Shown piece after piece: positions 10,409-64,000 of a stretch of DNA of 64,000 nucleotides. The notes beneath the pieces are model-generated. The model saw nothing but the letters and a program-made list of their open reading frames with translations, was not told the origin of the DNA and did no database searches. A program made the position numbers and the translations under genes. Origin of the DNA: Phormidium tenue FACHB-1050 (GTDB lineage Bacteria; Cyanobacteriota; Cyanobacteriia; Pseudanabaenales; Pseudanabaenaceae); the NCBI RefSeq assembly GCF_014696925.1, contig NZ_JACJQY010000006.1, forward strand, positions 1 through 64,000, given 5' to 3'. Within the stretch, counting starts at the first letter, position 1. Each line of letters opens with the position of its first letter.

Positions 10409-11109
10409 TACCAATCCTCCACTAAGCAATCTGTTAGTTGTGCTGGTAACTCTAAGATTCCTGTGGTTGGGGTTTCGTAGAAATGTCCGTACATCCCTAC
10501 TCGCATCCTAATCTGTGGGTTGGAGAAGATTTCGCCTAGTACTCCATAGATCCGAAATCCTGTCTCATCTCGATTATCTGTGTCTGAGAAATAGGCTCTC
10601 ATGCCATGATGGGAATGGATTTCGATGATGGCTTTGCTGTAACTGCTGTTCGCACTATTGTCCAAGGGCTTGCAGGATGTGGCTGTTTGTTCTTGATCTG
10701 GAATTGCGAGCTGCCAATTTCCATTTTCAAAATATAGGTGAAATACGATCTCTACGGGGTGATTGTTGGCATCGCAAGCAATGCGTGAGGCTTCGAGCAT
10801 TTGCTCTACCAGAAATAGGGGAACTGCTGGATAGGTCATCTGCACGGATGCGGATATTGCTCTTAGTCCTTTAGCTTTGTAATAAGATACTGGCGCGATC
10901 GCTTCTAATCCTTGTCTCTTGGCTCTCACAAATGTGCCGTTGCTGCCATAGACATACTCATACATTGAGGTTGCGGCGATTTCGGGTAGGCTTTGACTGG
11001 TGGCGATGATGTGCTGAATTAATGGGGGATTGTTGTAGGCGATCGTTGTCGGTGGTGATGCGGGATTTATTGTGGCTACGTGCTTTTGGACATGTTCTAG
11101 TAATTTCAT
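10408..11109 (-). CDS. PRTRC protein A, JAB/JAMM peptidase-like
   Basis: A 233-aa protein with a JAMM signature near residues 160-180: E-I-H-S-H-H-G-M-R-A-Y-F-S-D-T-D. The two His and the Asp are the expected zinc ligands. Enzymes of this family remove ubiquitin-like tags. The start at 11109 was chosen because ATGA overlaps the stop of the E2-like gene. The longer reading frame (to 11289) lies inside that gene and was rejected. It is flanked by E2-like and E1-like genes, which fits a conjugation/deconjugation pathway. Confidence 0.82.
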   Translation of the reverse strand: MKLLEHVQKHVATINPASPPTTIAYNNPPLIQHIIATSQSLPEIAATSMYEYVYGSNGTFVRAKRQGLEAIAPVSYYKAKGLRAISASVQMTYPAVPLFLVEQMLEASRIACDANNHPVEIVFHLYFENGNWQLAIPDQEQTATSCKPLDNSANSSYSKAIIEIHSHHGMRAYFSDTDNRDETGFRIYGVLGEIFSNPQIRMRVGMYGHFYETPTTGILELPAQLTDCLVEDW

Positions 11110-14500: not shown

Positions 14501-14755
14501 AAAATCTTGGTACTCAACAGGTAAAGATAGGCTGGACTAGCCATTTTTCTATCTTGAAAGCAATTTATCGAACAGTACATAGTAGTTTCTACCGAATTCA
14601 ATCACCTTTTCGAGGTTCATTAAATGGGTAGGACTGCGGACTATTTGTGAAAGCTGTTCATTCTGTTATAGACGCAGGAGATGGTATTAGTCAGGTAATG
14701 GAGGATGAGGCAAAAATCTGAGTTAATCACATTTTAACAAAGCATTGACGAATAC
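14501..14755. other. Intergenic stretch with a possible gene remnant
   Basis: No full gene. On the minus strand an open frame ending at 14549 encodes SQIVRSPTHL followed by MNLEKVIEFGRNYYVLFDK, a protein-like sequence with an internal ATG at 14621. It is only 23 codons from that ATG and is probably a decayed gene end. Confidence 0.3.
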
Positions 14756-15112
14756 TTAGATTCTTACGCGGCGCTTGGTGGTAAAGTTCCAATATGTAGT
14801 AAGAATTTGATAGCTATTTAGGGTTTGAAAGCAGATGACTTGTAAGCCTCTAAGCGAATTGGTAAACTTAGCATAGGGGCTATGTTTGAGTAGGCGATCG
14901 CTAAGTGTATAAACCGTTGCACCATGATGATCAAAGCGCTTTTGACCATAGGCGATCGCTATTTGCATCATTTCGTTACTAATGGCGCGTTGCTGTTGTC
15001 GGCGTTGGAGGTGATTAAGGTCTTTTGCTTTGCAGATGGGGATGAAGTTAACTTTTGATGTTAGGCGATCATCATTGGCGGCGATTTGTTGGATTTGTTT
15101 GTGGGTGTTCAT
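14756..15112 (-). CDS. DUF4258-like small protein
   Basis: A 118-aa basic protein. Residues 38-110 (QQRAISNEMMQIAIAYG, then YTLSDRLLKHSPYAKF and LRGLQVICF) resemble DUF4258-type proteins, which share a RelE-like fold. This could make it a stand-alone toxin-like ribonuclease, but no antitoxin gene adjoins it. It is transcribed away from the NACHT gene, so the two share the divergent promoter region 15113-15253. Confidence 0.45.
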   Translation of the reverse strand: MNTHKQIQQIAANDDRLTSKVNFIPICKAKDLNHLQRRQQQRAISNEMMQIAIAYGQKRFDHHGATVYTLSDRLLKHSPYAKFTNSLRGLQVICFQTLNSYQILTTYWNFTTKRRVRI

Positions 15113-15176
15113 TGTTGTAATGAGGTGATTTGAACACTTGCAGATTAGCTAGAATATTTGGTTCATACCAGTGCAA

Positions 15177-15212
15177 AAAAGGTCAGTAGTTAGTGACCTT
15201 TTCTGACCTTTT
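15177..15212. promoter_or_regulatory. Operator-like AAAAGGTCA repeats
   Basis: AAAAGGTCA at 15177-15185 is mirrored by TGACCTTTT at 15194-15202, and CTGACCTTTT follows at 15203-15212. The three half-sites lie in the divergent promoter region just before the NACHT gene, whose product carries an HTH. Autoregulation is possible; the hairpin could also act as a terminator. Confidence 0.4.
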
Positions 15213-15253
15213 AAAATCTTGTTGGGTTGCGTAAGCTTGGGCTTGTAACTGGT

Positions 15254-18208: not shown

Positions 18209-18521
18209 GACAGGCGAAATAAACTGAATACATCAACAATTGCCCTACTTATTTAAGACAGAAGAACAATAAATAGACGATTTTGCATTAATCGTTAAAT
18301 ATCTCAGTGTTGTAAATCGCTTGATTTGCAGTATCTGATAATGGTTAGCTAAAATCCCCTGTACAGTGAGAGTGAGGATAAATAGCTAAGGATAAATAAA
18401 ACTTTGTCTAGTCTATTTTTACAATGCCTAAACTCTTTCCTTTATAGCAATAAGCAACAAAACCAATGATTGTAAGGTAATCATCGGTTTTGTTGCTTAT
18501 TGGGAGCTAAACTGGTTCTTG
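18209..18521. other. Intergenic region between convergent genes
   Basis: 313 bp between the NACHT stop and the end of the Sak4-like gene. Apart from the terminator at 18449-18501 nothing gene-like is seen. Confidence 0.5.
18449..18501. terminator. Bidirectional terminator
   Basis: A 23-bp stem (arm begins AATAAGCAACAAAACC) with one G-U type mismatch and a seven-base loop separates the NACHT gene from the convergent ATPase gene. Confidence 0.8.
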
Positions 18522-19694
18522 CTAGAATTCCAGTTGGTTAGCGATGTCTTTAGCGATCTCGGCGTATTGTCCTGGATGCCGCGATGTCGATATATCAATT
18601 AGGTTTTGGGCTAGTTCGGCGGGGTATCCTTTAAGACCTAGCCATTCTCGCATCAGTGCTTCGCACACTGCTTTGATTTGCTCAGCGGTCATATTTTCAC
18701 TGTTGAATTTGGGTTTCAATCCGCTTTCATCGGCTCCATATAGGTCAATGCTGGTTTCAATCACTTTGCTGATATGTTGCTGGGTGATTGCCAATAATGC
18801 TTTGAAGGCGGCTTTGGCTGGGTTGTCGGGTTTGCTGTGATGGGTTTGGGTATTGGTAGTTGGCTTGGTTTCAATGACTGTAGCGATATGACCGTTGGTA
18901 CTAGCCATCTGGGGGATATGACCGTTGCTGCTGACGACTGCGGCTAGTTCGGACTGTTTTTGTGGCTCCTGTACGACAGGATTTACAGGTACATTGATGA
19001 TCGGGATAAAGGCATTTCTGTTAACTGGGGTTTCATCACTCAGCCATGTTTGAATCATTTCGGCAAATTTCTTGCCTGGTTTTGGGAAAATACCGTTACT
19101 AATTTCGGGACATCTACTCTTGGAGATTGTCAGGGTATTCTGGTCATCTAGTAAGCCACAGATGTCCATTTCAAATTCGCTGCCTTCCTTTTGGATAGGT
19201 GCTGTACCAATCTTGCGGACACCAGTAATTTTCTGCTTACCGCCAACTTCAGTCGTGCTGTAGTCGTACTCAATCTTTGACCGCATCGTGACAATGATGT
19301 GGCAACTCGAACTGATGATTTTGTCCCATAGTTGGCGTTCGATCGGGCGGATTCTTGCCCAGTTCCTCACGTCACTGCCCACTGCGTCTAGTTCGGCGTA
19401 CCATGCGTGGGATAGGGAGTCGATGATTAGGTAATCAAATCCTGATTCTTCGGCGCTTTCAATGGCGTTGTAATATTGGCTGGGTCCAAATTTGGTTAGT
19501 TCAAGAACTTTAAAGTTGAACAGGTTGGCATATTTACGGCTTGAACCATATTCGGTGTCGATCAGTCCAATTTTCTTGCCCAATATTGATGCTAGTTGTA
19601 GGGCGGTGTAGGTTTTGCCGCAGCCTGGGGGACCGTACAGTGCCATGCGGAGTTTGATGTTTTCTTTGGTTGCTTGCTGAAATGAGTAGGTCAT
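18522..19694 (-). CDS. Sak4/RecA-like ATPase (AAA_24 type)
   Basis: A 390-aa P-loop ATPase. Walker A is GPPGCGKTYT near residue 20, Walker B is FDYLIIDSLSHAW near 85-95, and the RecA-like core continues to about 210. This is the arrangement of phage and plasmid AAA_24 or Sak4 recombinases, which anneal single strands with SSB. A Q/T/N-rich linker (about 230-285) joins a C-terminal helical domain. The ATG is well supported by GGAGAAATATCT. Together with the ssb gene at 14033 it could form a recombination pair for plasmid repair or replication. Confidence 0.75.
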   Translation of the reverse strand: MTYSFQQATKENIKLRMALYGPPGCGKTYTALQLASILGKKIGLIDTEYGSSRKYANLFNFKVLELTKFGPSQYYNAIESAEESGFDYLIIDSLSHAWYAELDAVGSDVRNWARIRPIERQLWDKIISSSCHIIVTMRSKIEYDYSTTEVGGKQKITGVRKIGTAPIQKEGSEFEMDICGLLDDQNTLTISKSRCPEISNGIFPKPGKKFAEMIQTWLSDETPVNRNAFIPIINVPVNPVVQEPQKQSELAAVVSSNGHIPQMASTNGHIATVIETKPTTNTQTHHSKPDNPAKAAFKALLAITQQHISKVIETSIDLYGADESGLKPKFNSENMTAEQIKAVCEALMREWLGLKGYPAELAQNLIDISTSRHPGQYAEIAKDIANQLEF

Positions 19695-19768
19695 AGATAT
19701 TTCTCCTTTTGAGTAAGTGGGTTTGGTAAATACTTGGAATTTTTCCTTGCGAGCCTCGCTAGAGGAAA

Positions 19769-19807
19769 AGCCAGAAAAGGCGGCGCGATGCGCCGCCTTT
19801 TCTGGCT
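19769..19807 (-). terminator. Terminator after the VWA gene
   Basis: Perfect 18-bp GC-rich stem (AGCCAGAAAAGGCGGCGC arm) with a three-base loop, followed on the minus strand by a short T-run. Confidence 0.85.
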
Positions 19808-19820
19808 ACAAATGTTTTTT

Positions 19821-21278
19821 TTAGATGCTGTATAGACAGTCGGACACTTCACTGTCGTCTGTGAGATCTTCTATTTCCACATAGCGATCGCATAGTTTGC
19901 TGATCGTACTTTCATTGTTGTGGAGGTTTCCACTGGTAATCAAGATGCCGTAGCAACTAAATTCATACTTTTTCCTGTCTGCTTGCCATTGCTCCATAAA
20001 ATTAGATGATGGAATGTCTAGTCCGTCGGTGATTAATACCACGTCTGCTTTTTTGGTTTGTTCGTGTTGTTGGATCGATGCTAATGCTCCCGTGAGGGCG
20101 GCTGTAAAACAAGTACTGCCGCCGTTGTAGAACTTTTCGATGCAGTCAATCACGCTATTGGTATCGGGGATTTCTCCCGAGAAGTCGTCGATCCGCTCCA
20201 CTATGTCTGTAAAGTGTAAGATGCGACAATGGCGCTTTTGACTGACGGCGATACTCAATAGGGCGAGGGTGATCGCTTTGCTCCAGATTTCTGCTTGCCC
20301 TGCCATTGACCCACTTGAATCTAGACAAATGATGATTGGTCCTCTGGCTAGTGGTTCGCGGCTGATTAGTTCTCGTTGTAATAGCGATCGCTCGATATAG
20401 CCTTGGGCGAATATGGGAAATAGTGCGGGTTGGGTAAGCTTTACTAGTTCGCAGGGCAGTAGGCGCGTTAGGTCGTTGCCTGTGGTTACACCGATGATTT
20501 CGGTGCGTCCTTCTTTGACTTTGCTACGTTGCATTTTGGCGGCGATCGCGATTTTCTTGCCTGCGAGTTCAGCGATCGCTTGCAGTTTTGGCGATGCTTG
20601 AAGGCGCTGGGCGAGATGGATTTTATCGGCGATTTTGAGTTGGGTTTCTTGGCTGTAATCGCTACCTCCGCTAAAGGCTTCTATGCTTTCGGCGATCGCT
20701 TGCATTTCTGCTTCGGCTTTGGCTATGCCAATTAGCAGTGCGGTTTCGATTTCGGCATTGCTAATGGAATCAGCATAAGCTTCACTTGCTAGTCGCGCTT
20801 CTAGTCCTTTTTGTTTTAACTGTTGAATTTTTAGCATCAGCCCAGCATTGGGTGTTTGTCCTTGCAATGCTTCAAAAATACCCCGAAGCTGATTTCTGAT
20901 TACTTCTGGGTCTTCTAGTGGTTCGGTTGGTTCGGGCAGCATTTCGACAATCGCGATACATAGGGCGGTTGTGCCAATACCTGCAAGAAATTCATCTCCA
21001 TTCAGGCGGTTGCTAAATTGCTGAAATACTTCTAGTTCGCTCATCTGTTGATGGATGGCGATCCAGATTTTGTTTTCAGGTTTGATGGCGCTGTCTTCGA
21101 GTCGATTGGGTTGGCGATCGTACAGGCGATGATAGGTTTCGCTGACAAAGGTTTCAAAGTTGTAGACTTTGCTTTCGCCTTCTTCGATGACTTCACTTAG
21201 TCTTGATGATTTCTCTTTAAAGTCATTGACACATAACTCTGTCCATTTCGGGATCACATACACTAAGGGTTCTTGCAT
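19821..21278 (-). CDS. VWA-domain protein (ViaA-like)
   Basis: A 485-aa protein. The C-terminal third is a von Willebrand factor A domain with the MIDAS motif DSSGSMAG near residue 320, then GGSTCFTAAL and ITDGLD, which supply the other metal-binding positions. The N-terminal two thirds are helical and E/A-rich. Its upstream neighbour is a MoxR/RavA-type AAA+ ATPase, a pairing found across bacteria (RavA-ViaA and related) in which the ATPase remodels a target through the VWA partner. The target here is unknown. Confidence 0.8.
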   Translation of the reverse strand: MQEPLVYVIPKWTELCVNDFKEKSSRLSEVIEEGESKVYNFETFVSETYHRLYDRQPNRLEDSAIKPENKIWIAIHQQMSELEVFQQFSNRLNGDEFLAGIGTTALCIAIVEMLPEPTEPLEDPEVIRNQLRGIFEALQGQTPNAGLMLKIQQLKQKGLEARLASEAYADSISNAEIETALLIGIAKAEAEMQAIAESIEAFSGGSDYSQETQLKIADKIHLAQRLQASPKLQAIAELAGKKIAIAAKMQRSKVKEGRTEIIGVTTGNDLTRLLPCELVKLTQPALFPIFAQGYIERSLLQRELISREPLARGPIIICLDSSGSMAGQAEIWSKAITLALLSIAVSQKRHCRILHFTDIVERIDDFSGEIPDTNSVIDCIEKFYNGGSTCFTAALTGALASIQQHEQTKKADVVLITDGLDIPSSNFMEQWQADRKKYEFSCYGILITSGNLHNNESTISKLCDRYVEIEDLTDDSEVSDCLYSI

Positions 21279-52740: not shown

Positions 52741-53907
52741 TTAACCCAAAATAATTTGTTGAGTTTTATGCACTGCTGCAATCAAGATATTTGCCGCACG
52801 ATCAATTTCTACATCGGTTGTGAATTTGCCAATGCTAATTCGTAAGGCTCCTTCAATGAGGTTTGTGGGTAGGTTAATGGCTTGCAAAACATGAGAAGCA
52901 GCCTCAACTCCTGATGCACAAGCCGAGCCTGTCGCGATCGCTAGTTGATCGTGAATTCTAGCAATGATTGCTTTATTGGGAATATTGGGTATAGAAATAT
53001 GCAAGTTTCCCGCCAATCGGTTGAGGCGATCGCCATTGATCACAAGTTCAGGAATACTCTCTAGTAATAAATATTGGAGGCGATCGCGTTTAGCCGCAAT
53101 TACTTGTTCGTCTTCCGACATTTCTTGCTGGCGCAAGCGGCAAGCTTCACCTAGCCCAGCAATTCCTGCGACGTTGAGCGTTCCTGCTCTGATCCCTTTT
53201 TGTTGTCCACCTCCATAGATAAGTGGTTCTAGCTGATAGCCTTTACGCAAAATTAAGGCTCCAATGCCTTTAGGAGCATACATTTTATGTCCTGATAGTG
53301 TCAGATAGGTAATGCCCCAGTCTCGAAAGTTAAAGGGGATTTTGCCAACAGCTTGGGTGGCATCGCAAAGAAAGGGAATGTCATATTGTTGCGTGATCGC
53401 GCCGATTTCTTGCAGAGGGTAAATCGTGCCAATCTCGTTATTGGCTGCCATCACACAAATTAAATCTATTCCTTGAGAGCAAGTTGTTTCTAAATTTTCA
53501 AGGTCTAGTTTGCCTTGGCGATCGACTTTTAAAAAGATTATCTCGGCAAGTCCCTTTTTAGTTAAGGCATCACAAGTATCAAGAACAGCTTTATGTTCTA
53601 TGGGTAATACAGCAATTTTGAGCTTATGGGAGCTAGGTGATTTTTGAGGTAATCCTCGTAGAACCAGATTAATACTTTCGGTCGCGCCAGATGTAAAAAT
53701 TACTTCTCTAGGTACGGCTCCGACTAAATCGGCGATTTGTTTGGTGGCTTGTTTGACTGCGTGATCGGCTTTATCGCCGTAGATGTGATCTGTGCTGCTA
53801 GCATTGCCGAATGCAGTAGTCATGTAGTGTAGTACGACATCTGCTACACGGCGATCGCATGGAGTAGTGGAATGATAATCAAGGTAAATTGGGTAATTCA
53901 GCTTCAT
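52741..53907 (-). CDS. Cysteine desulfurase (IscS/NifS/DndA-like)
   Basis: A 388-aa PLP enzyme. LDYHSTTPCD opens the fold, FTSGATESIN binds the cofactor phosphate, the Schiff-base lysine is in LSGHKMYAPKGIG, and the catalytic cysteine is in ATGSACASGVE. It removes sulfur from cysteine as a persulfide. It could feed iron-sulfur cluster or tRNA modification, but beside a restriction-like island it could supply sulfur for DNA phosphorothioation (DndA or SspA role). No DndBCDE or SspBCD gene is inside the window, so that link is only a hypothesis. Confidence 0.9.
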   Translation of the reverse strand: MKLNYPIYLDYHSTTPCDRRVADVVLHYMTTAFGNASSTDHIYGDKADHAVKQATKQIADLVGAVPREVIFTSGATESINLVLRGLPQKSPSSHKLKIAVLPIEHKAVLDTCDALTKKGLAEIIFLKVDRQGKLDLENLETTCSQGIDLICVMAANNEIGTIYPLQEIGAITQQYDIPFLCDATQAVGKIPFNFRDWGITYLTLSGHKMYAPKGIGALILRKGYQLEPLIYGGGQQKGIRAGTLNVAGIAGLGEACRLRQQEMSEDEQVIAAKRDRLQYLLLESIPELVINGDRLNRLAGNLHISIPNIPNKAIIARIHDQLAIATGSACASGVEAASHVLQAINLPTNLIEGALRISIGKFTTDVEIDRAANILIAAVHKTQQIILG

Positions 53908-53915
53908 TAGTATTT

Positions 53916-54126
53916 AGGGCTTGCTGAATAAGTCTACAAAGTGAATCTAGATGCCACACAGCTCTAACAATAGTGGTTTTGGAGGTTGGGTTCAAAATTT
54001 ACCCCACGATTTTTGCCAAAATACATGGGTTTTGAGCCTCCAAATGCCATACTCTTGCACTTGGTTGGCTCAAAAAAACTTAAGACCCTTATTTGTCTTG
54101 GATTCTAGCTTTATTCAGCAATCCCT
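53916..54126. mobile_element. 211-bp MITE
   Basis: Terminal inverted repeats AGGG(C/A)TTGCTGAATAA at both ends and a 4-bp ATTT flank on each side (53912-53915, 54127-54130). No transposase is encoded. It lies directly upstream of the cysteine desulfurase start and may have changed its promoter. The rest of the gap to 54270 is A+T-rich and empty. Confidence 0.75.
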
Positions 54127-54270
54127 ATTTATATCCAAAATACCTACTTTGCAGAACTTTTAAGATTCGCAAGGTCTAGATTATAATTTAATCTATTTAT
54201 TATTGTAGTTTAGTCAGTTTCTTTTTGTGTTGTTATAGAACTTTATTCAACTCTTGAAAATATTAAAAGC

Positions 54271-55152
54271 CTACGCAAATTTTATATCTTCCAAACTTTT
54301 AAGAAATTCAGCGGTAGAACTTGGGCGACGAGATGAATTATGTTGCAGGGTTTCTAAGAGAAGTTTACCTAATGAAGGTGGACCAGACCAATCATCAATT
54401 GTTAGAATGCCAATAGGTGGACGGTGGGTCACAACAAACCAAAAAACTGATGCAAGTTGAAAAAGATCAGAGCAGCAGTTAATTTCATCTGCTAGTCCCA
54501 TTGCTTTAGAGACCGCTTCAGGTGACATCCAATATCTAGGGCCTACAGCCTCATCAGCGCGAGTTAAATGTTTTTCCTCTCCCTCTAACTGAGCACACAA
54601 ACCAAAATCAGAAATCTGCCAGATATCTCCGCTGATTAGGATATTGTCAGGTTTGATGTCGCGATGTATTGCTCTAGCTTCTGAGTGTAGTTGTTCAAGC
54701 GCCCTAGTAAGACCGACAAACTGACCATAATAATCTTCAAAACGTATTTGGGAGAGATTATTTGTAAGAAATTCTCGCAAATTAGAGTCGGCTTTACGCA
54801 TGACAACAAAAGGTTGAATACACTTTTGTTGATTATTTAGGTTTCTGAGATTAGAACTAGAGTGCTTACGGATAACGCTCATATTACCGTGAGTAATGTA
54901 GGTAATAATATGTGGATGACTCAAGCAACTGATTACTTTAATTTCTCTTTGGAATCTTTGAGATCTAGGGTATTTGGGATTTATAAGAATTTTTAAAGCA
55001 AATATTTCTCCAGTAGCAGCATTTTCACATTCAAAAACAATACCATTCCCCCCTTTCCCTAACTGCTCAGAAATTGTATATGTGCAATCATTTTCCCCTA
55101 GGATATTCTCTGGCAAAGCATATACTTCTCTGTTGAATTCAAATTCAATCAT
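54271..55152 (-). CDS. Hanks-type Ser/Thr protein kinase
   Basis: A 293-aa kinase with all key motifs: glycine loop GKGGNGIVF near residue 33, ALKIL lysine, HRDIKPDN catalytic loop near 165, DFG and a SPEA-type segment WMSPEAV. There is no transmembrane anchor or sensor domain, so it acts in the cytoplasm. Its start overlaps the stop of the DUF262 gene by eight bases, so they are coupled. It probably phosphorylates or switches on the partners encoded upstream. Confidence 0.9.
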   Translation of the reverse strand: MIEFEFNREVYALPENILGENDCTYTISEQLGKGGNGIVFECENAATGEIFALKILINPKYPRSQRFQREIKVISCLSHPHIITYITHGNMSVIRKHSSSNLRNLNNQQKCIQPFVVMRKADSNLREFLTNNLSQIRFEDYYGQFVGLTRALEQLHSEARAIHRDIKPDNILISGDIWQISDFGLCAQLEGEEKHLTRADEAVGPRYWMSPEAVSKAMGLADEINCCSDLFQLASVFWFVVTHRPPIGILTIDDWSGPPSLGKLLLETLQHNSSRRPSSTAEFLKSLEDIKFA

Positions 55153-56527
55153 AATCCAGCTCCATAGATATCTGATTAGGGTTATCTGATGATTGATGAA
55201 GTGGATCTACAATTAGCCAGCCATCAAGCTTAGCTTCTTCATCTTTAAGTTTGATGGCTTCCAAAATTTCTCTTTGAATGTACTGAGCATTTGACATTTG
55301 GAGAACATTACTTTTACCAGTCCATGCTAAGATAGAGTTCTCTGGAGTTGGAGAGAACTCTACACCCGAAAATGGGCAAGTTTCATTAGAAGGAGGACAA
55401 AGTTGCCCACCCCAAATAATGTCATATAGAATGCTAGAAAATATCTTCTCAGAGGATTTGGAAAGTTTTTGTAGATAGGTGCCACAGATAATATTTTCTA
55501 ATAAGTCAATTCTCCATCGGCGACTTGAAGCTGAGTTAGCATCTGAGACACAGCGAATCGCATACTCTCGTAAAGTCACAACATCCGAAGATGGGGCAAT
55601 ATGATAGTCAAGAATGGATAAATCAGTGCGAAGTGGTTTTAAATCTTTGCCAGTAATGCTTCCACCTTGACGGTGAAGATTGTAGATTGCTCCGAACAAT
55701 GAATAAAAGTCAGATTTTTGCCGAAACCTTGTATGACCAATAGCAGCAAGTTTTCCATGAAGTCCATCACCATCAAAGATTATTTGACAATCATTAATTA
55801 CTTGATTAAATCGTTGGATTACCTCCTCACTATCAGGCTTTGCCCAGTTCATATATTCTTCATAGACCGCATCTAACTGCTCTTTTTTATCTAAAGGACT
55901 TTCTCGAATCATTAATGCGAGTAGTTCAGATACAAACTCAACATCAGCCATGCGTCTTCGATTTGCGGGTGTAAAAACTTTAAACTCATCAAGAGTATCT
56001 GATAGTGCAAGATCTTCTGAAATCTTGAGAAAATCGCCTGGGAAGTCAGCACGTCTCAGCTCTTGCTTATTAAGCTGCTTCATGTATTTGTTAATGCGCC
56101 AATAGATTTGTCTTACTTCATCATCAGTTGCGGATGTGATTTCATTCATATCTAGTCGGTAATTTACAAACAGATCTCTATCTCTTTGCTCTAGATCCTC
56201 AAATCGCCTTCCACGAAAGCGCTCTTCACAAGGGGGAGATGTAAGAGCAAAAACACCATGTTTAAAGTCAAGAATTGCTCTAAGTCTTTGCTGACCATCA
56301 ATGACTTCTCGGAAAGTAGCATTATCTCTTACCATTCTGCGGGCATAGAATTTTGGGATTGGTATGTTTTTGAGAATAGAGTCTATGAGCATAACTCTTG
56401 CCGCCTGACTCCATACCTCACGTCTCTGAAAATCTGGTCGCAACTCAAGACGGTTTAAGTTTGTCCAGTCAAAGATATCTCCGATTGATACGTTAGTACT
56501 ATCCCAAGAAGTCATTTCATTAATCAC
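55145..56527 (-). CDS. DUF262 (ParB-like/GmrSD N-terminal) protein
   Basis: A 460-aa protein. The N-terminal domain has RPDFQRREVWSQ near residue 35 and VIDGQQRLRAIL near 75, the DGQQR signature of DUF262, which binds and hydrolyses nucleotides in GmrSD and SspE restriction proteins. The usual C-terminal HNH (DUF1524) is not clearly present, but CPPSNETCPFSG near 385-397 keeps three cysteines that could be a relic zinc site. It is 58 bp after the large nuclease-ATPase gene and coupled to the kinase gene. Confidence 0.82.
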   Translation of the reverse strand: MINEMTSWDSTNVSIGDIFDWTNLNRLELRPDFQRREVWSQAARVMLIDSILKNIPIPKFYARRMVRDNATFREVIDGQQRLRAILDFKHGVFALTSPPCEERFRGRRFEDLEQRDRDLFVNYRLDMNEITSATDDEVRQIYWRINKYMKQLNKQELRRADFPGDFLKISEDLALSDTLDEFKVFTPANRRRMADVEFVSELLALMIRESPLDKKEQLDAVYEEYMNWAKPDSEEVIQRFNQVINDCQIIFDGDGLHGKLAAIGHTRFRQKSDFYSLFGAIYNLHRQGGSITGKDLKPLRTDLSILDYHIAPSSDVVTLREYAIRCVSDANSASSRRWRIDLLENIICGTYLQKLSKSSEKIFSSILYDIIWGGQLCPPSNETCPFSGVEFSPTPENSILAWTGKSNVLQMSNAQYIQREILEAIKLKDEEAKLDGWLIVDPLHQSSDNPNQISMELDYD

Positions 56528-56585
56528 CTTAATATTTTGACAAGAATTAAAAATTCAATTGATTCAATAGTTTATAGAAAACACA

Positions 56586-59500
56586 TTAGGTCAAGTTGGC
56601 TAATGATCTCACTATATCTACTAATATAGGAAATTCTTCATCGCTCAAAAATGGAACTTGAGCGTAGATAAGTTCGGGCTCGCTAGAAAGACGGGCTACT
56701 AGATGCCCTCGACCTAGCAAATATTCTGCTCCTTTGCGTCCAAGTGCAATTTCAGATGTACCTTCATCAGCGACTTTCAGAATAAGTCGGTTGTCAAGAT
56801 TTGAGCGTAATTGCATCGGGAACACACTGTTATCAGGACGTTGAGCAGCAAAAATTAGGTGAATGCCAGCGGCTCTAGCTTTTACTCCTAAGCGTTGTAC
56901 AGCAGCAGAGATAGCATTTTTATATTCTTCAACCAGCATCCAATCAGCGAACTCATCGTGAACGAGAAAGATAAAAGGCAGTTTCTTTTCTACTTTCAGG
57001 TTATATGCTGACAAGCTGTTAACCTTTTGATCTCGGAATTGCTTGTAGCGGCGATCCATTTCTTCAACAATCTGATCGAAAATAGCGATCGCTCGTTCTT
57101 GCTCGATGATAATACCTTCAGGAAAATGAGGTAGGTCTTCAAAGGGGAAGTAGTCAGCACCTGATTTAGTGTCAATTAGGTAGATGTTGACGAGATCGGG
57201 TGAGTTTGTGGCTGCAATATCTAGGAGCAAGTTTCTTAGCAGCACTGATTTACCGCTTCCTGTTGCGCCAGCAATAAGCGTATGAGGTGCGTGCTGCTGA
57301 AGATTTTCAAAGTTACTGCCTAAGTTTAGGTACAACAGTTCGCCATCAAGTTCTTTAACTGCGATCACAAAACTCAAGTTAACTCTTGCGATTGAGCGGT
57401 TGAGCTTACGTCGCGCTAAGACTTCCCCGAGATAGATGGTCTGACGTTGGGGACGAGCGATTGCAACTTGAATTTCTCCAGGTTGAGCTGTGAGATTAAT
57501 GATTTGTAGCCCATGAGTAGTTAAGATAGGCGATCGCTTCTTCTCAATGTCTATAATTCCTAGGTTGTCAGTACCTTTAAGGCGCACAATTGCAGCATTA
57601 GGGGTAAGTCTTTGTCCCAAGACTTTTGCCTGTAAATTGTAGCCCATTAGAGCTGTTTTAAGCTTAGTGGCAGTATCAATCAACCATTGCTCAGCTACAG
57701 CATCGCTATGACTCGTTTGTGCCTGTTGCCACCATGCTACAAGTGCGGGACTAGCCCAGTTAGATTCATCTTTCGTAGTAGCAGACACAGATGTATGACT
57801 TCCAGTAGTAACATTTACCGTCGGTTCATTCTGAGATGGCGATGATGGAATCGCCTTATCGCCTACATCTTTTTTAATCTCTGGAGTAGGAATATCTTTT
57901 TCATGTTGAGCTATCTCAACACTTGTAATTTTATCGGGCATTGCACTAGTAGATTCGATGTCTAGCACCCAAGTCACTCGATTAGCAGGGAACAATGGTT
58001 GAGAAACTAACCAAGGCTTATCGTCGCCAATCAACTCACGCACTGTAAACAGAGATTGTTTAGACTCATGGGCAAGTACCAGTTTTCTCACAGACTCGCG
58101 ATCGTAGGTTTCCTGAAAACAGCGATCGACCTTTTGAATGAAAATCCTTTCGCTTTCAATATTGCTATCATTCATGCCTGAAACAAAAACGTGAGAATAA
58201 CCAGACAAGTCGATACGAATTGTTCCTGTACGTAAGCCTTCGCGCCACTGTTCGATGGGCAGCATCGTATTAGCACTAAATTCTATACCTTCTAGCATGA
58301 GATCGCTGAGACGAGATAGCCACAGATCGCGATCGAGACGACCTGGGCTAATAAAAAGAGCATCAGCAATACGATAGACTGTATCGCGAAGCTGATTCTG
58401 GGAAGTCTTACGAGCATCGGCTACCCCTGAAATATCAACATACTTGGCTTCAGCAATGACGATCTTCAGCACGGGCTGACCATCGATATACTGGGGTGAA
58501 ATTGCCATAATGTCTGCAATTTGTCCTTCTTTTTGTCCCAGCCATGAAGCGTAATCATCAAGAAAATACCAACCGATAGGATATTTCTTGCCAATTTCTT
58601 CTGTGACGATCGCTTTGCTCAATACAACTCCCATCAATTCACTTGCAAATATGCCACACTTAGCAGCCCGTAATACTATGTCGCCAGAGAGAGTATTTGC
58701 CTCATCAATAAAGCTTTGCACGAGCTTATCAATTCGATTACTCTCAATGCCAAGGTTGAGCGCTTCTAACCGCTTACGGACTAAAACCTCTAATAGATTT
58801 AGCGAAGCAGAAGAAGAGACAAGGAAATTACGCTCGTCGGTGCGATGCTGTTGATAACGAATCACCTTGACCCCTTGATTGACCAATTGTCGTCGTTCGA
58901 GTAAGTCATCGTAATTTACGACCCATTCACCCAATCGATGAGTTTCGTCAAAAATTGTTCTTGTTTGTTCGTCTTGAAAAGATATCTGACGCGCAGGCAG
59001 GAAATGTTGATTATCTTGCAAGTCCTTACCTTCGATAATACTGTAGACAGCATCAAGGTAAGCCTGCCCAACATCAAATTGTTTAGGGCATGTAAGGTAG
59101 ACGGTGGAACGCATTTCATCAGACGGAGCAGGTCGTTTACGAGACCATCGGGCAGGGAAATAGGTCAGCATGTTTGGCGAAGTTTCATCAAATGGAGTAG
59201 GTTGCCAAATAACTCGTGCTTGTCGCGAGATGGCATCCTGTAAGAAAACGATGTCAGCAAATTTCCCGTCTTGGGGATTAGCCGGTGGAATATTTTTGGG
59301 CATGACACTAATTCGCAGCCGTGCCATAAAATCCTGAGATACTTCACTAGCAATGAAAGCATCAGGATCGACATCAGAACTTTCGATCATTTGCTCATAA
59401 AGCTGTGCGAGTTTAGTTGGATCGCGGTGGCGCAAAATAACTTGACAGCGAACTTCTTCGCCTTCTTCTTGCAAAGCATCGCCGAGCTTATTGACGATTG

Positions 59501-61946
59501 CTAGTGGCAGCTTTACAGAATCAGTTTGATAGAGTACAACACTCAAGTTAGCCTTTTCATGAGGAAGGAGTTCAACATAGCGATTTATCAACCTTAATAA
59601 CTTTTCCGCAGCATCAGTTGGATCTTCATGTGTACTACGGTCTGTTTCGTCTTTGATGGGAGGTTCCATAAGGCTATAATCATTGACTGTATCGGAGACC
59701 GCAAGGATTTTTGGCTCTCGACCTTGATAGCCTACACTTACTTCTGGAGCATGGGGATGGAGTAGGTCATTCCGTAAATCGGCAAAGAATAGACGAGAGT
59801 CTCCAAAATTGACCTCAGATTCTGAAAGGATATGCCTAAGCAATCCTGCGAGTTGGCGAGTTTTAACAGCAATAGCAGCCAGTCTTAGTGGCTGCCAAGG
59901 TGCAACGATCGCCGCAGGCTTTCCTCGATCTTTTCGCATCCCACCAACACGTACGCAACCTAAATGTAGAATCGTCTGATAGAGTTCCAAGCGATTACTA
60001 TCACCTTTGGCATGGATTAGCAAAAGTGTGAGTAATTTACCATACGCTTCGCATTGGTGTATAAGAGTCGGGCTAGCAATTCCTTCACCCGTGGGTTCGA
60101 CGAGAGTAGCGATCGCTTGTTTGTAGATTGCTTTGAACTGCTCCCAAGCTTCCAGTATTTCCTGTACTGCTTCTTGGGGAAGTTTTCCTTCCTTAGCTGA
60201 TTTTTTAAGCTTGTCGGTAAGTTTATCTAGTTCGCTCTTGCGCTCATACTTCCCAATTAATGAACCGCGATCTCTGTTGTATCCAGGTGATAACGTCCCC
60301 ACATCTGAAAGAGAAATGCCTTGAAGCTTGCCTTTCTTACTAACGAGTTCGCGCTGCACCTGTGAGATTTGGAATGGAGAGTTCTCGTGTAAGCGCAGCA
60401 GGTCGCTGTAAAGCTCCATCCCGATTGCATTGGGGTTCCCTTTCCAGATTAGTTGTGTCTTAGCAATAAGGTTTCGATCTTTATCCCGCATTTCTACATA
60501 AAACTTAATTTCTATTGCCGATCTAGCAATAGAAGTATTCTCTTTGTACTTGCTTTTCTGTTTCTTTTTCTCACTTTCAAGAAGTCCATCGTATTTGAAC
60601 AACCAGTGAGTATCCCATTCAATATATGGACTTGTAAGTTTCTCAATACCACGATAGCGAGTACAAAAATACTGTCCGATATTAGCATTTAACTCCAACC
60701 AACCGCTTTTTCGAGAACTTTTTTGAGTCGAAATTGATAAGGATTTAATACTTTCATCTGAGTCAGCTTGATCGAAGAGCCGCTCGAAAGCCTGTAACAA
60801 TCCAATCAAGAAATCATTACATTCAATGGGTTGTCCGTAGACAAACTTATCCCATTTAGCCTTTAGCTTACGATTATCTTCAAGGCGAGGACGATGTGCT
60901 TCGTAAAATTCTCGATCATCGTCTAATGCTTCTTTCTTATTGCGTTTCTTGAGGGCGTTAAGATACTGTACCTCTAAGTCAGTTAAAACATCAGGAAATT
61001 CATCGCTGAAGAAGTCAATCGTTAGTGAGGCAAGATCAGTTTTTTGGGTTTGCAAACCAGAAAAAAGACTGCTAATGCTGTTGGTTTCCCACTCAAACTT
61101 TGCTAGTGCTTCAGATTCGGTATTCCAACCTGCCGAACTGTTTATGAAAGCTGAAATTGCAGGATGGGCAATTTCGGGAATATCTTCTTTGACTTTCTCA
61201 AAAGCATCTCGCAATTCCTGTTCTTCAATTGGTTTGCGGTTTGGTCGCTGCTTTTCCAATAGGCATTCTCGTTTTGATTTAAGTTCCTGAAAGGCTTTTT
61301 CCCACCGTTGAAGTTTACCTAACTGCGTTTCTGGAATTGCACCAAAGTAACCAGAGTCACATGGCAAGTGTAGTGCAGGTAAAGCTCTACCCAAGGCATC
61401 AAGGATAGGTAGACCTTCTGCTTGAATGTACGATCTTGTCTCAACCACATATTCAGCAAATTGTTCTAGACTTCGCGAAATAACCTTCTGTAAGCCCTCG
61501 ATCGCCTTACGCCAGTAATTGAGGTGGTTTTCAGAGATCGGCAAATCTCTAGCTGCACAGTCTATCCAGAGGTCAATTTGGCTTTTTAGTTCTTGCGCCC
61601 CCAAAGAAGTGATATCGCCAAGAGACTGAGCTTGATCGTCATCGCTTGTATTGGCGAGTAGAAGTGCAGAAAGTTCACAGGGAGAGTGACGCAGATGTAC
61701 AGTCCTCTCATCTGTCAGAAACGCTTCAGGAAGTCCGTAATCTCCAACAAGTGATCGCGGCACTTGAATTTTGACAAGGCACACAAGCTGAGTATCTTGC
61801 CGAATTGCATGGCAAACCGCTGCTACCTGTTGGGCAGTGAGGCGATCGAGCATATAGCGAGCGACACCTTCTGATGCCTCATCTATATTGATAGATCGCT
61901 TGAGAAATCCTGCTGCAACTTGTCCAATTAGATCGATTGCCTTCAT
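56586..61946 (-). CDS. Giant nuclease-FtsK/HerA ATPase, DptH/SspH-like
   Basis: A 1786-aa protein. The ATG at 61946 overlaps the previous stop (TAATG) and has GGAGG upstream. Near residues 1190-1220 a PD-(D/E)xK-like site is seen, with ADIMAI and then VIAEAKYVD (D...EAK). The C-terminal 250 residues are an FtsK/HerA-type motor: GATGSGKSVLL, then IYLIDTKSGADY and FIFLVHDEFADW, and AAQRPDN. The N-terminal 1100 residues are unrecognised. Size, plan and neighbours resemble the large component of phosphorothioation-dependent restriction (DptH, SspH), but this name is tentative. It should translocate on and cut unmodified DNA. Confidence 0.65.
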   Translation of the reverse strand: MKAIDLIGQVAAGFLKRSINIDEASEGVARYMLDRLTAQQVAAVCHAIRQDTQLVCLVKIQVPRSLVGDYGLPEAFLTDERTVHLRHSPCELSALLLANTSDDDQAQSLGDITSLGAQELKSQIDLWIDCAARDLPISENHLNYWRKAIEGLQKVISRSLEQFAEYVVETRSYIQAEGLPILDALGRALPALHLPCDSGYFGAIPETQLGKLQRWEKAFQELKSKRECLLEKQRPNRKPIEEQELRDAFEKVKEDIPEIAHPAISAFINSSAGWNTESEALAKFEWETNSISSLFSGLQTQKTDLASLTIDFFSDEFPDVLTDLEVQYLNALKKRNKKEALDDDREFYEAHRPRLEDNRKLKAKWDKFVYGQPIECNDFLIGLLQAFERLFDQADSDESIKSLSISTQKSSRKSGWLELNANIGQYFCTRYRGIEKLTSPYIEWDTHWLFKYDGLLESEKKKQKSKYKENTSIARSAIEIKFYVEMRDKDRNLIAKTQLIWKGNPNAIGMELYSDLLRLHENSPFQISQVQRELVSKKGKLQGISLSDVGTLSPGYNRDRGSLIGKYERKSELDKLTDKLKKSAKEGKLPQEAVQEILEAWEQFKAIYKQAIATLVEPTGEGIASPTLIHQCEAYGKLLTLLLIHAKGDSNRLELYQTILHLGCVRVGGMRKDRGKPAAIVAPWQPLRLAAIAVKTRQLAGLLRHILSESEVNFGDSRLFFADLRNDLLHPHAPEVSVGYQGREPKILAVSDTVNDYSLMEPPIKDETDRSTHEDPTDAAEKLLRLINRYVELLPHEKANLSVVLYQTDSVKLPLAIVNKLGDALQEEGEEVRCQVILRHRDPTKLAQLYEQMIESSDVDPDAFIASEVSQDFMARLRISVMPKNIPPANPQDGKFADIVFLQDAISRQARVIWQPTPFDETSPNMLTYFPARWSRKRPAPSDEMRSTVYLTCPKQFDVGQAYLDAVYSIIEGKDLQDNQHFLPARQISFQDEQTRTIFDETHRLGEWVVNYDDLLERRQLVNQGVKVIRYQQHRTDERNFLVSSSASLNLLEVLVRKRLEALNLGIESNRIDKLVQSFIDEANTLSGDIVLRAAKCGIFASELMGVVLSKAIVTEEIGKKYPIGWYFLDDYASWLGQKEGQIADIMAISPQYIDGQPVLKIVIAEAKYVDISGVADARKTSQNQLRDTVYRIADALFISPGRLDRDLWLSRLSDLMLEGIEFSANTMLPIEQWREGLRTGTIRIDLSGYSHVFVSGMNDSNIESERIFIQKVDRCFQETYDRESVRKLVLAHESKQSLFTVRELIGDDKPWLVSQPLFPANRVTWVLDIESTSAMPDKITSVEIAQHEKDIPTPEIKKDVGDKAIPSSPSQNEPTVNVTTGSHTSVSATTKDESNWASPALVAWWQQAQTSHSDAVAEQWLIDTATKLKTALMGYNLQAKVLGQRLTPNAAIVRLKGTDNLGIIDIEKKRSPILTTHGLQIINLTAQPGEIQVAIARPQRQTIYLGEVLARRKLNRSIARVNLSFVIAVKELDGELLYLNLGSNFENLQQHAPHTLIAGATGSGKSVLLRNLLLDIAATNSPDLVNIYLIDTKSGADYFPFEDLPHFPEGIIIEQERAIAIFDQIVEEMDRRYKQFRDQKVNSLSAYNLKVEKKLPFIFLVHDEFADWMLVEEYKNAISAAVQRLGVKARAAGIHLIFAAQRPDNSVFPMQLRSNLDNRLILKVADEGTSEIALGRKGAEYLLGRGHLVARLSSEPELIYAQVPFLSDEEFPILVDIVRSLANLT

Positions 61947-63499
61947 TAAGAAACCTCCGCCGCAAATGGGTTCTGAACATAAGCACAAGCATCTGATAGG
62001 CGCTTGAGCAAACCAATACTAGCTAGACGACGCTCCAACCTCAGCGCATTTGCCGTAAAATCTTCGCGATCGGCTTCACCTGAGTCGATGAAACTCTGTG
62101 CCTGCTTTTCACCAATGACAAAACCATATGTTTCATAAAGCTTTGCCAGAAACTCCTGAAATTCCATACGACGAGGTACACAAGTAAGTACAAGCGTTTT
62201 TAAAAGAGCATCTGTAGGTGCATACCTTGTACGTCTACTACTCCGTCTTGAGGAAAGTCCAATTTCTTTTGACCATGTGCCATGAAATTTGGCGAGGTGT
62301 TGTTTATGTCTTGAAACAGCCTCATCTCGAAGATTGAGTAATAGTTCATCGGGAGAATTTGCTGAGGTTTTTGTCCAAACAAAGCGTTTTTCTAAAAGCT
62401 CTTTTGCCCCTTCAAGGGGGTTAAACGATTCAAGACACTGTTGCCATTCTTCGAGTTTAGTTGTACCAAGAATGTATTCCTCGATTGCTTGCTTGGGCAG
62501 GCTGTTATTCTTTTCATACTCATTTGCCGCCATATCTCGAATGCTTGTTTTTTTCGGTGCAACGATTTCAAGGACAAAGAGCGGCTTTTGGACATCTTGA
62601 AGTACAGATTTTGCACGCTTTAACAAATAGATAATAAGGTGCAAGCCTGTAATCGTGACAATGTGGGGTAATGCATCGTAGTCAGGTAAGTTGCAACGTA
62701 AAATGCTGAGCCAATCATCTGCTAAGGATTCATATTCTGGCAGGAAGGCATAAGGCAAAAAGGGAGGACTACTACTCAATCGTTTGTCTTCACGATCTTG
62801 ATCGGGTTGAAGAGCAAGAACGAGTTGATTCCACTTCGATCCTTTATAGCTAGTAGCATATTCACTGCTAATAATACCCATTTTTTGCAAATAGGAGTGG
62901 ATTTCTGCTCCCCTGCCGCTACGACATAGCATTAAATACGCTAGTTCTCCTGTTCTGCCAAAAAATCGTCGGTCATTAGTTTTATTCGAGCCACTGATTC
63001 GTAAATCTTCGTAAAGACAATCAGGTCCATATGGGAAGACAAACTTTGAACTCCACCGTTTGTTACTATCTCCTTCAATGGCACTTGCTTGAAAAAACTT
63101 TACAATCTCAGCAAAGGTATCGAATGAAGGAAAACGACTCTTTAAGTAACTGAAATCGACAGAGTCAATACCACCCACGCTCTTCGACATTTCCTCTATC
63201 CAAGCCTCCCATCGCTCCACATCGTCAAAAAACTCTGAAGTTATTGCTTCAATATGAGGATTATTAAATAAAATATTGCGAAGATGAAGGCGAAAATATA
63301 TTGAGTATTGAAGTTTATTTTTTTCCTCTTCAATAAAGGCTTTGCCACTTACCGATTCTGATTGAACAATACATAACATTTCCAAAATGCAAAGCCAAGG
63401 GGTCTGCTCGTCATATAGTCGATGCCCCCAGATCGATTCATCAACCCACATGTTGAGTTGAGACTTTTCGATATGTGGGCGTGGTAGTGACTCTAACAT
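61946..63499 (-). CDS. Restriction-island protein, unknown
   Basis: A 517-aa protein with no known motif. The opening NMWVDESIWGHRLYDEQTPW is striking and probably family-defining. The rest is mixed alpha-beta, with a basic region SSRRSSRRTRYAPTDALLKT near 420-440. It is coupled by TAATG to both the partial gene before it and the nuclease-ATPase gene after it, so the three make one unit. The position matches the small middle component (DptG or SspG) of phosphorothioation-type restriction sets, but no sequence proof is visible. Confidence 0.6.
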   Translation of the reverse strand: MLESLPRPHIEKSQLNMWVDESIWGHRLYDEQTPWLCILEMLCIVQSESVSGKAFIEEEKNKLQYSIYFRLHLRNILFNNPHIEAITSEFFDDVERWEAWIEEMSKSVGGIDSVDFSYLKSRFPSFDTFAEIVKFFQASAIEGDSNKRWSSKFVFPYGPDCLYEDLRISGSNKTNDRRFFGRTGELAYLMLCRSGRGAEIHSYLQKMGIISSEYATSYKGSKWNQLVLALQPDQDREDKRLSSSPPFLPYAFLPEYESLADDWLSILRCNLPDYDALPHIVTITGLHLIIYLLKRAKSVLQDVQKPLFVLEIVAPKKTSIRDMAANEYEKNNSLPKQAIEEYILGTTKLEEWQQCLESFNPLEGAKELLEKRFVWTKTSANSPDELLLNLRDEAVSRHKQHLAKFHGTWSKEIGLSSRRSSRRTRYAPTDALLKTLVLTCVPRRMEFQEFLAKLYETYGFVIGEKQAQSFIDSGEADREDFTANALRLERRLASIGLLKRLSDACAYVQNPFAAEVS

Positions 63500-64000
63500 T
63501 AGACATTCACCTCAAAGGTACGAGGACTTGCTATACCATCATTATTAACTTTCAAAAGACGAAGACTCATAGACTCTTCTACATCTTCTACATTCTCAGC
63601 TTTTTTTCTAATTGCCAGATGCTTGAGTACCTGTGTCTTAAAAGCAAGAACATCTTCATAACACTCTTGAGAAAAACTGCTAGGTAGAGCACCTTCTGCT
63701 ACCCTACTAAGATACTCATATCGAGTTACCGTTAGATTAAAACTTACAGGTTCAATATCTTGTGAGAGGCGAACAACTAAAAAAGGGATTACTCTATTGA
63801 CATTGAGTTCCACAGAGACACTTTCACCTCGATCTTTCGCCACAGATATAGATTTCTCATACACCCGACTAATCTTTGCTTGAGAGTAACTCCCAGAAGT
63901 TGCAAGAATTAAATCGTCTTCATTGTTAACAAGTAGACCCGTAAAAATACGGTTAAGACCCCGCACTAGGCGGGTAACAATAAATTTAGGAAGCTTCTTT
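63499..64000 (-). CDS. Partial gene cut by the window end, unknown
   Basis: Only the C-terminal 166 residues are present; the frame is open to the edge (KKLPKFIVTRLVRGLNRIF comes first). The sequence GLNRIFTGLLVNNEDDLILA looks like the late part of a P-loop NTPase, but no Walker motif is in view. Its stop overlaps the ATG of the 517-aa gene (TAATG). It is the first known gene of the right-hand island. Confidence 0.65.
   Translation of the reverse strand, partial: KKLPKFIVTRLVRGLNRIFTGLLVNNEDDLILATSGSYSQAKISRVYEKSISVAKDRGESVSVELNVNRVIPFLVVRLSQDIEPVSFNLTVTRYEYLSRVAEGALPSSFSQECYEDVLAFKTQVLKHLAIRKKAENVEDVEESMSLRLLKVNNDGIASPRTFEVNV

What the first reader, a model, noticed from the sequence alone, without database searches (positions are those of the whole stretch)
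52741..64000. Restriction-like island: cysteine desulfurase, kinase, DUF262, nuclease-FtsK giant, unknowns
A giant PD-(D/E)xK-FtsK protein, a 517-aa unknown and a third gene are tightly coupled (TAATG junctions). DUF262 and kinase genes follow, and a sulfur-supplying enzyme lies next to them. The set resembles phosphorothioation-type defence (DptFGH or SspFGH), but DUF262 plus a coupled kinase would be a variant control layer.
Basis: partly seen in the sequence, partly recalled or inferred. Interest (0 to 1): 0.75.

Follow-up and report, generated by a model that had tools for sequence, protein, structure and literature searches.

The report
Sulfur-DNA defence with sensor-kinase cassette
This is a complete, known type of anti-phage system that marks DNA with sulfur (Ssp), but it carries an apparently undescribed two-gene cassette, an SspE-like DNA-sensor protein without its nuclease plus a protein kinase, which is swapped as a unit between such systems in unrelated bacteria and may be a third kind of weapon that reads the sulfur mark.

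Summary
The contig continues past the window, and the locus is a complete SspABCD-SspFGH phosphorothioation (PT) defence system on a plasmid-like contig of a Pseudanabaena-type cyanobacterium: sspB, sspC and sspD lie just right of the window; sspF, sspG, sspH and sspA are as observed. That part is known.

The DUF262 and kinase genes are the new part. They overlap by 8 nt and form a subfamily with a sharp sequence boundary. All 13 pair loci found (Cyanobacteriota, Alpha- and Betaproteobacteria, Bacillota) have the kinase next to the DUF262 gene and sspB (DUF4007) nearby, 14 and 42 kb away in two. None of 96 more distant DUF262 loci has either. Six of the 13 lack sspG, so the pair is not a control layer of SspFGH alone. 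In seven alphaproteobacterial loci the two proteins co-vary (r = 0.97) but vary independently of SspABCD (r = 0.02-0.10): the pair is exchanged as a cassette.

The DUF262 protein keeps the SspE/DndI-like NTPase domain and DGQQR motif but lacks a recognisable HNH nuclease; the kinase keeps all catalytic residues. Most likely it is a PT-linked sensor-kinase effector. Function is untested.

The parts
52741..53907 (-). sspA: cysteine desulfurase (sulfur donor)
   Evidence: PADLOC SspA 7e-136, DndA 3e-135 (tied); Pfam Aminotran_5 9e-70
54271..55152 (-). Protein kinase of the DUF262-kinase cassette (Kin); K54, E70, HRD-D165, N170, D182-FG, SPE all present
   Evidence: Pfam Pkinase 7e-31; alignment of 13 members; starts inside the DUF262 gene, 8-nt overlap
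55145..56527 (-). DUF262 protein of the cassette (D262): ParB/SspE-like NTPase domain with DGQQR (77-81), helical middle, small degenerate C-terminal domain without a conserved His
   Evidence: Pfam GmrSD_N 4e-18, no DUF1524; alignment; model pLDDT 87, matches BrxU, SspE, DndI, ParB
56586..61946 (-). sspH: 1786 aa, PD-(D/E)xK nuclease (about 1000-1300) plus FtsK/HerA ATPase (Walker A at 1560)
   Evidence: PADLOC SspH 2330 bits; Pfam FtsK_SpoIIIE 8e-35; invariant E-D-ExK
61946..63499 (-). sspG, 517 aa; TAATG junction with sspH
   Evidence: PADLOC SspG 9e-203; junction
63499..64000 (-). sspF, 3' part (gene runs to contig position 65331, 610 aa); TAATG junction with sspG. Further right, outside the window: Uma2 65394-65999 (-), sspD 66025-66813 (-), PemK/MazF 67475-67846 (+), sspC 67841-71359 (-), sspB 71360-72271 (-), unknown 204 aa 72274-72888 (-), TIGR04096 72888-74981 (+)
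   Evidence: PADLOC SspF 3e-236, SspD 2e-113, SspC 1490 bits, SspB 1e-120; Pfam; TIGR04096 6e-255

Best explanation
The locus is a complete SspABCD-SspFGH system. SspA mobilises sulfur from cysteine, SspD/SspC/SspB place single-stranded phosphorothioate marks on host DNA, and the SspFGH complex (SspH = PD-(D/E)xK nuclease plus FtsK-type motor) attacks unmarked phage DNA. On top of it sits an independent two-gene cassette, D262-Kin. D262 is a DUF262 NTPase of the SspE/DndI/BrxU kind whose C-terminal nuclease has degenerated. Its most likely job is to sense the PT state of DNA, or infection, through NTP binding or hydrolysis and to switch its partner kinase on or off. The kinase, instead of an HNH nickase, delivers the response by phosphorylating proteins, probably shutting down host functions needed by the phage. 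Shown here: gene content, pairing, tie to PT genes, cassette exchange, catalytic residues, predicted fold of D262. Inferred: physical contact of D262 and kinase, PT sensing, phosphorylation as the effector step, antiphage effect. I favour PT-licensed action like SspE only slightly over a guard that fires when PT marks are lost.
For: Ssp core. Pairing: 13/13 D262 subfamily loci have the kinase directly next to D262, 0/96 more distant DUF262 loci do; Fisher p = 4e-17, optimistic because loci are related. The D262 subfamily was defined by sequence alone, with a gap from 454 to 227 bits; 5 of 5 members found later obeyed the rule. PT link: DUF4007 (SspB) in all 7 member genomes checked, 0 of 14 control genomes; 0/96 control loci near Ssp genes. 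Independence from FGH: no SspG in 4 member genomes and 2 whole plasmids. Cassette exchange: L035 versus L038 are 91-97% identical in F, G, H, B, C, D but 49% (D262) and 54% (kinase); L025 versus L026 likewise; r = 0.97 D262-Kin, 0.02-0.10 D262-SspABCD; Mantel r = 0.92, 0 of 10,000 permutations. Filled and empty sites: sspH is followed 12-107 nt later by convergent sspD in three relatives, by D262-Kin in four others. D262 model: BrxU Z 8.8, SspE Z 8.3, DndI Z 6.1. Kinase residues conserved. C-terminal domain absent in L037 while the pair stays intact.
Against: No experiment shows that D262 binds PT-DNA, contacts the kinase or blocks phage. The aromatic-Gln-Arg motif that reads PT in SspE (Y30) and DndI (Y25) is kept (F33-Q34-R35), but it is equally common in unrelated DUF262 proteins, so it says nothing about PT sensing. 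Structural Z-scores to SspE/DndI are middling and ParB scores as high. D262 matches the PADLOC model NsnA of another system, and no SspE model. The 13 loci are not independent: seven are alphaproteobacterial, with similar Ssp genes in six of them.
Confidence: 0.58

Rival explanations
1. Control layer: the DUF262 protein and kinase regulate SspFGH, for example by phosphorylating SspF or SspH so that the nuclease acts only during infection.
For: In the window and six relatives the pair follows sspH directly, in the same orientation. A kinase (MAD6) also accompanies SspG/SspH-like proteins (MAD7, MAD8) in MADS (profile similarity).
Against: Six of 13 pair loci have no SspG in the genome or plasmid searched. 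D262-Kin differs strongly between loci with near-identical FGH, unexpected for a specific regulator of FGH.
Confidence: 0.14
2. Guard of the PT mark: D262 holds a toxic kinase in check while host DNA carries PT marks; loss or inhibition of marking by a phage releases the kinase and the cell arrests.
For: No D262-Kin pair was found in a genome shown to lack PT genes, as expected if an orphan is lethal. SspFGH and DndI are already known to harm PT-less cells (PMC8092258, PMC11662687).
Against: The same tie to PT genes is expected for a PT-activated effector like SspE. No toxicity data.
Confidence: 0.2
3. D262 is still the effector (a nickase by another active site) and the kinase only tunes it.
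For: SspE and DndI, its structural relatives, are nickases; the C-terminal region keeps zinc-knuckle-like cysteines and a short strand-strand-helix in most members.
Against: No DUF1524 match, no conserved His in the C-terminal domain, and the domain is missing in L037.
Confidence: 0.1
4. Passenger: an unrelated defence or toxin-antitoxin-like pair that merely sits in PT islands.
For: The islands also hold PemK/MazF, Uma2 and other accessory genes; the slot after sspH holds other genes in relatives.
Against: 13/13 versus 0/96 association across three phyla and different restriction partners is too tight for a passenger.
Confidence: 0.07

Closest known systems
SspABCD-SspFGH (Vibrio anguillarum FF-93; Wang 2021, PMC8092258)
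   Same: All seven genes present and of the right families; conserved F-G-H order; TAATG coupling here
   Different: Carries D262-Kin between sspH and sspA; that paper mentions neither a kinase nor DUF262 (word search)
SspE (PDB 6jiv, 7drs) and DndI (PDB 9jfl), PT-sensing DUF262-DUF1524 nickases
   Same: DUF262/ParB-like NTPase domain with DGQQR; encoded beside PT modification genes
   Different: No recognisable HNH nuclease; overlapping kinase gene instead; no SspE profile hit
DndF proteins with fused Ser/Thr/Tyr-kinase domains (PMC10853773)
   Same: A kinase proposed as an extra effector in a PT-related system
   Different: There fused to DndF in Dnd systems; here a separate gene paired with a DUF262 protein in Ssp systems
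MADS (MAD6 kinase, MAD7, MAD8)
   Same: Kinase resembles MAD6 (PADLOC 3e-35); SspG C-terminus resembles MAD7 and SspH ATPase MAD8
   Different: Scores far below NCBIfam cut-offs; sulfur-modification genes instead of methylation
Menshen NsnA, PD-T4-2_A
   Same: DUF262 domain (1e-44, 7e-23)
   Different: No other Menshen gene at the locus; paired with a kinase here

Membership tests
SspABCD-SspFGH | sspB (DUF4007), sspC (ATPase), sspD (PAPS-reductase type), cysteine desulfurase | tested here: met
   PADLOC SspB 1e-120, SspC 1490 bits, SspD 2e-113, SspA 7e-136; Pfam DUF4007 4e-100
SspABCD-SspFGH | sspF, sspG, sspH adjacent, SspH with FtsK-like C-terminus | tested here: met
   order F-G-H with overlapping codons
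SspABCD-SspFGH | PT at 5'-CCA-3' and phage restriction of unmodified DNA | not testable with these tools
   Needs LC-MS/MS and plaque assays
DndFGH (DptFGH) | Profile match of the three genes to DndF, DndG, DndH | tested here: not met
   No DndF/G/H model among PADLOC hits at E<=1; all Ssp; whole SspF also Ssp only
SspE / DndI | N-terminal DUF262 NTPase domain with DGQQR | tested here: met
   GmrSD_N 4e-18; D77-GQQ-R81 invariant in 13 members; fold matches SspE, DndI
SspE / DndI | C-terminal DUF1524 HNH nuclease | tested here: not met
   No DUF1524 match; no conserved His, domain absent in L037
SspE / DndI | Hydrophobic PT-reading residue (Tyr before Gln-Arg) | tested here: inconclusive
   F or Y present in all members, but also in 124 of 134 non-member DUF262 proteins
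MADS | MAD6 and MAD7 above NCBIfam cut-off | tested here: not met
   MAD6 64.5 bits (cut-off 460), MAD7 49.9 (cut-off 410)
BREX type 4 | PglZ and BrxL beside the PT genes | tested here: not met
   No PglZ/BrxL hit among the island proteins scanned; requirement from PMC12839542
Menshen | NsnA together with NsnB and NsnC | tested here: not met
   DUF262 part matches NsnA, no NsnB/NsnC hit among neighbours

The most novel reading that the evidence does not exclude
D262-Kin is a stand-alone third class of effector for Ssp phosphorothioation systems, after SspE and SspFGH: a PT-reading NTPase that signals through a protein kinase rather than cutting DNA, so that a DNA backbone mark controls protein phosphorylation. 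It is diversified by cassette exchange, plausibly under pressure from phage inhibitors, and accounts for some sspBCD loci with no known partner.
Probability: 0.42. Interest if true: 0.82.

Novelty: new variant of a known kind. Interest (0 to 1): 0.62.

Why it matters
Wang et al. 2021 (PMC8092258) report that 2,211 of 2,678 sspBCD loci have neither sspE nor sspFGH, and suggest undiscovered restriction partners. D262-Kin is a concrete candidate, with a defined sequence family, a testable boundary and natural single-partner loci (Asticcacaulis plasmids). If right, PT defence would include signalling by phosphorylation, not only DNA cleavage. Phages are known to inactivate DndFGH with a kinase of their own (cited in PMC11662687), so a host kinase in the same arena is of direct interest.

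Tried and rejected
Genome-contig scan with the single DUF262 protein found nothing; an alignment query worked. Viral-contig scan found only distant DUF262 proteins, at most 38% identity over short stretches, none a convincing member. Profile A4 found no solved structure by sequence at E<=0.01; the larger profile gave BrxU 3e-4 and DndI 0.025. The idea that F33-Q34-R35 marks PT sensing was dropped because controls have the same motif. Foldseek alone gave no match below E 0.001 for either model. BREX type 4, MADS, Menshen and DndFGH were considered and not met. Other DUF262 neighbours checked as controls (Glutamicibacter, Pseudoalteromonas, Rhizobium plasmids) have no annotated kinase beside the gene. 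Literature searches found no paper describing a DUF262-kinase pair in Ssp loci, but the library holds only open-licence papers and no preprints.

Full report
What is there. The window is contig C56, bases 1-64000, of a 5.6-Mb genome; the contig is 171 kb long. The same locus, 99-100% identical in most proteins, lies on plasmid ABRG53b of the cyanobacterium Pseudanabaena sp. ABRG5-3, so this is very probably a plasmid of a close relative.

The core is a known system. Beyond the window edge lie the rest of sspF, then a Uma2-family gene, sspD, a PemK/MazF toxin on the other strand, sspC, sspB and a TIGR04096 phosphorothioation-associated methyltransferase. PADLOC profiles call SspA, B, C, D, F, G and H with very strong scores; no Dnd restriction profile matches. 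The giant protein is SspH, with an FtsK ATPase and a region whose invariant E-D-ExK residues and predicted fold fit a PD-(D/E)xK nuclease; the structural scores alone would not prove this.

The extra pair. Between sspH and sspA are a DUF262 gene (D262) and a protein kinase gene that starts inside it (8-nt overlap). On two Asticcacaulis plasmids the same pair stands beside sspABCD and a DndB homologue with no sspFGH; SspG is absent from the whole of both plasmids. A profile search of genomes with D262 gave a clean boundary: members score above 450 bits, everything else at most 227. Every member (13 of 13; a further copy in Sphingopyxis has a truncated D262 beside an insertion element and no kinase) has the kinase directly next to D262. 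Five of these were found after the rule had been noticed. Among 96 non-member DUF262 loci, none has a kinase of this kind adjacent and none has Ssp genes in the 10 kb on either side, as far as the contig allows. The kinase model does detect other kinases, as seen at L050 and L077.

The tie to phosphorothioation. DUF4007 (SspB) is present once in each of seven member genomes checked: adjacent or nearly so in five, 14 kb away in G1179 and 42 kb away in Schlegelella; in the remaining members sspBCD is in the fetched locus. The restriction partner varies: SspFGH in seven loci, Pbe-type genes (PbeA with or without PbeC, on PADLOC profiles for two loci and on my own model for the third) in three, no other partner seen in the two Asticcacaulis plasmids, and one locus (G365) cut by the contig end. 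SspG is absent from G365, G386, G389 and G700. Thus the pair follows the modification genes, not FGH.

Cassette exchange. Novosphingobium MAG L035 and Sphingomonadales MAG L038 share 91-97% identity in SspF, G, H, B, C and D but only 49% in D262 and 54% in the kinase; Asticcacaulis L025 and L026 show the same (SspABCD 88-98%, D262 49%, kinase 48%), and the two versions match crosswise, L035 with L026 and L038 with L025 at 66-67%. Over seven alphaproteobacterial loci the pairwise identities of D262 correlate 0.97 with the kinase and 0.02-0.10 with SspA, B, C, D. Over all 13, Mantel r is 0.92 with 0 of 10,000 permutations reaching it. Three related loci show the empty site: sspH ends 12, 22 and 107 nt before the convergent sspD, where four others carry D262-Kin. 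The simplest reading is that the two proteins must match each other and are replaced together.

What the proteins look like. D262 (model pLDDT 87) has a ParB/SspE-like NTPase domain with the DGQQR motif needed for GTP hydrolysis in SspE (PMC9646914); best structural matches are BrxU, SspE and ParB-type proteins, and DndI is among them. It has no DUF1524 match. Its small C-terminal domain has zinc-knuckle-like cysteines in most members, no conserved histidine, and is absent in L037, so an HNH nickase is unlikely. The kinase has all residues of an active Hanks-type kinase.

Mechanism. By analogy with SspE, whose PT-stimulated NTPase switches its own nuclease, I propose that D262 is the sensor and the kinase the output. 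This is inference; no contact, PT binding or phage defence has been shown. The reading motif of SspE is kept but is common to DUF262 proteins generally and cannot be used as evidence. Whether PT marks activate or restrain the pair is open. Precedent: kinases fused to DndF, proposed as backup effectors (PMC10853773).

Novelty. I found no description of this pair in the open literature searched, which is limited. The Ssp core is already known; the pair makes it a new variant, possibly a new effector class for Ssp. It bears on the published observation that most sspBCD loci have no known partner (PMC8092258).

Limits. The 13 loci are not independent and seven are alphaproteobacterial; the Fisher value is therefore optimistic. 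For the Asticcacaulis strains only the plasmids could be searched. The kinase control used a model of this kinase, which also detects other kinases but may miss remote ones.

Noticed in passing
L024 (NZ_AP017562.1), 9714-10500 and 14582-19942: In Pseudanabaena sp. ABRG5-3 sspD is split into two frames and sspH into three annotated ORFs, whereas both are intact in this contig; D262, kinase, sspF, sspG and sspA are intact there. Sequencing errors or joint loss of marking and cutting.
   Followed up: no
L034 374-9853, L037 3-8830, L155 12193-19668: Ssp-type modification genes (SspC, SspB, SspD) combined with a PbeA-type PLD-DEAD helicase, and in the two Bacillota loci also a PbeC/DndD-like ATPase: an apparent Ssp-Pbe hybrid.
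   Followed up: partly
L025 22721-25048 and L026 22701-25028: A DndB-annotated protein sits beside sspABCD on both Asticcacaulis plasmids, although DndB normally belongs to Dnd systems.
   Followed up: no
L021 16395-19041: In another cyanobacterial Ssp locus the slot after sspH holds an AAA ATPase gene that looks OLD-like, a transposase and a 239-aa unknown instead of D262-Kin, and sspC is interrupted by a 486-aa ORF: the slot seems to be a hot spot for accessory genes.
   Followed up: no
contig 67475-67846 (L004 7476-7847) and 65394-65999 (L004 5395-6000): A PemK/MazF toxin gene on the opposite strand between sspC and sspD, and a Uma2-family nuclease gene between sspD and sspF, inside the ssp operon.
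   Followed up: no
contig 72274-72888 (L004 12275-12889): A 204-aa ORF with no Pfam, PADLOC or NCBIfam match between sspB and the TIGR04096 methyltransferase; at this place ABRG5-3 has XisH/XisI genes and another unknown instead.
   Followed up: partly
L031 4596-9169: In Candidatus Chlorohelix a sensor histidine kinase and a 714-aa unknown are inserted between sspC and sspD; a similarly annotated kinase/unknown pair lies upstream of sspF in Rhizorhabdus (L029 4579-8939).
   Followed up: no
L022 (G122 contig C26), 10-10767: A very divergent Ssp-like locus (SspA to SspG at 22-32% identity) in another class of the same phylum.
   Followed up: no
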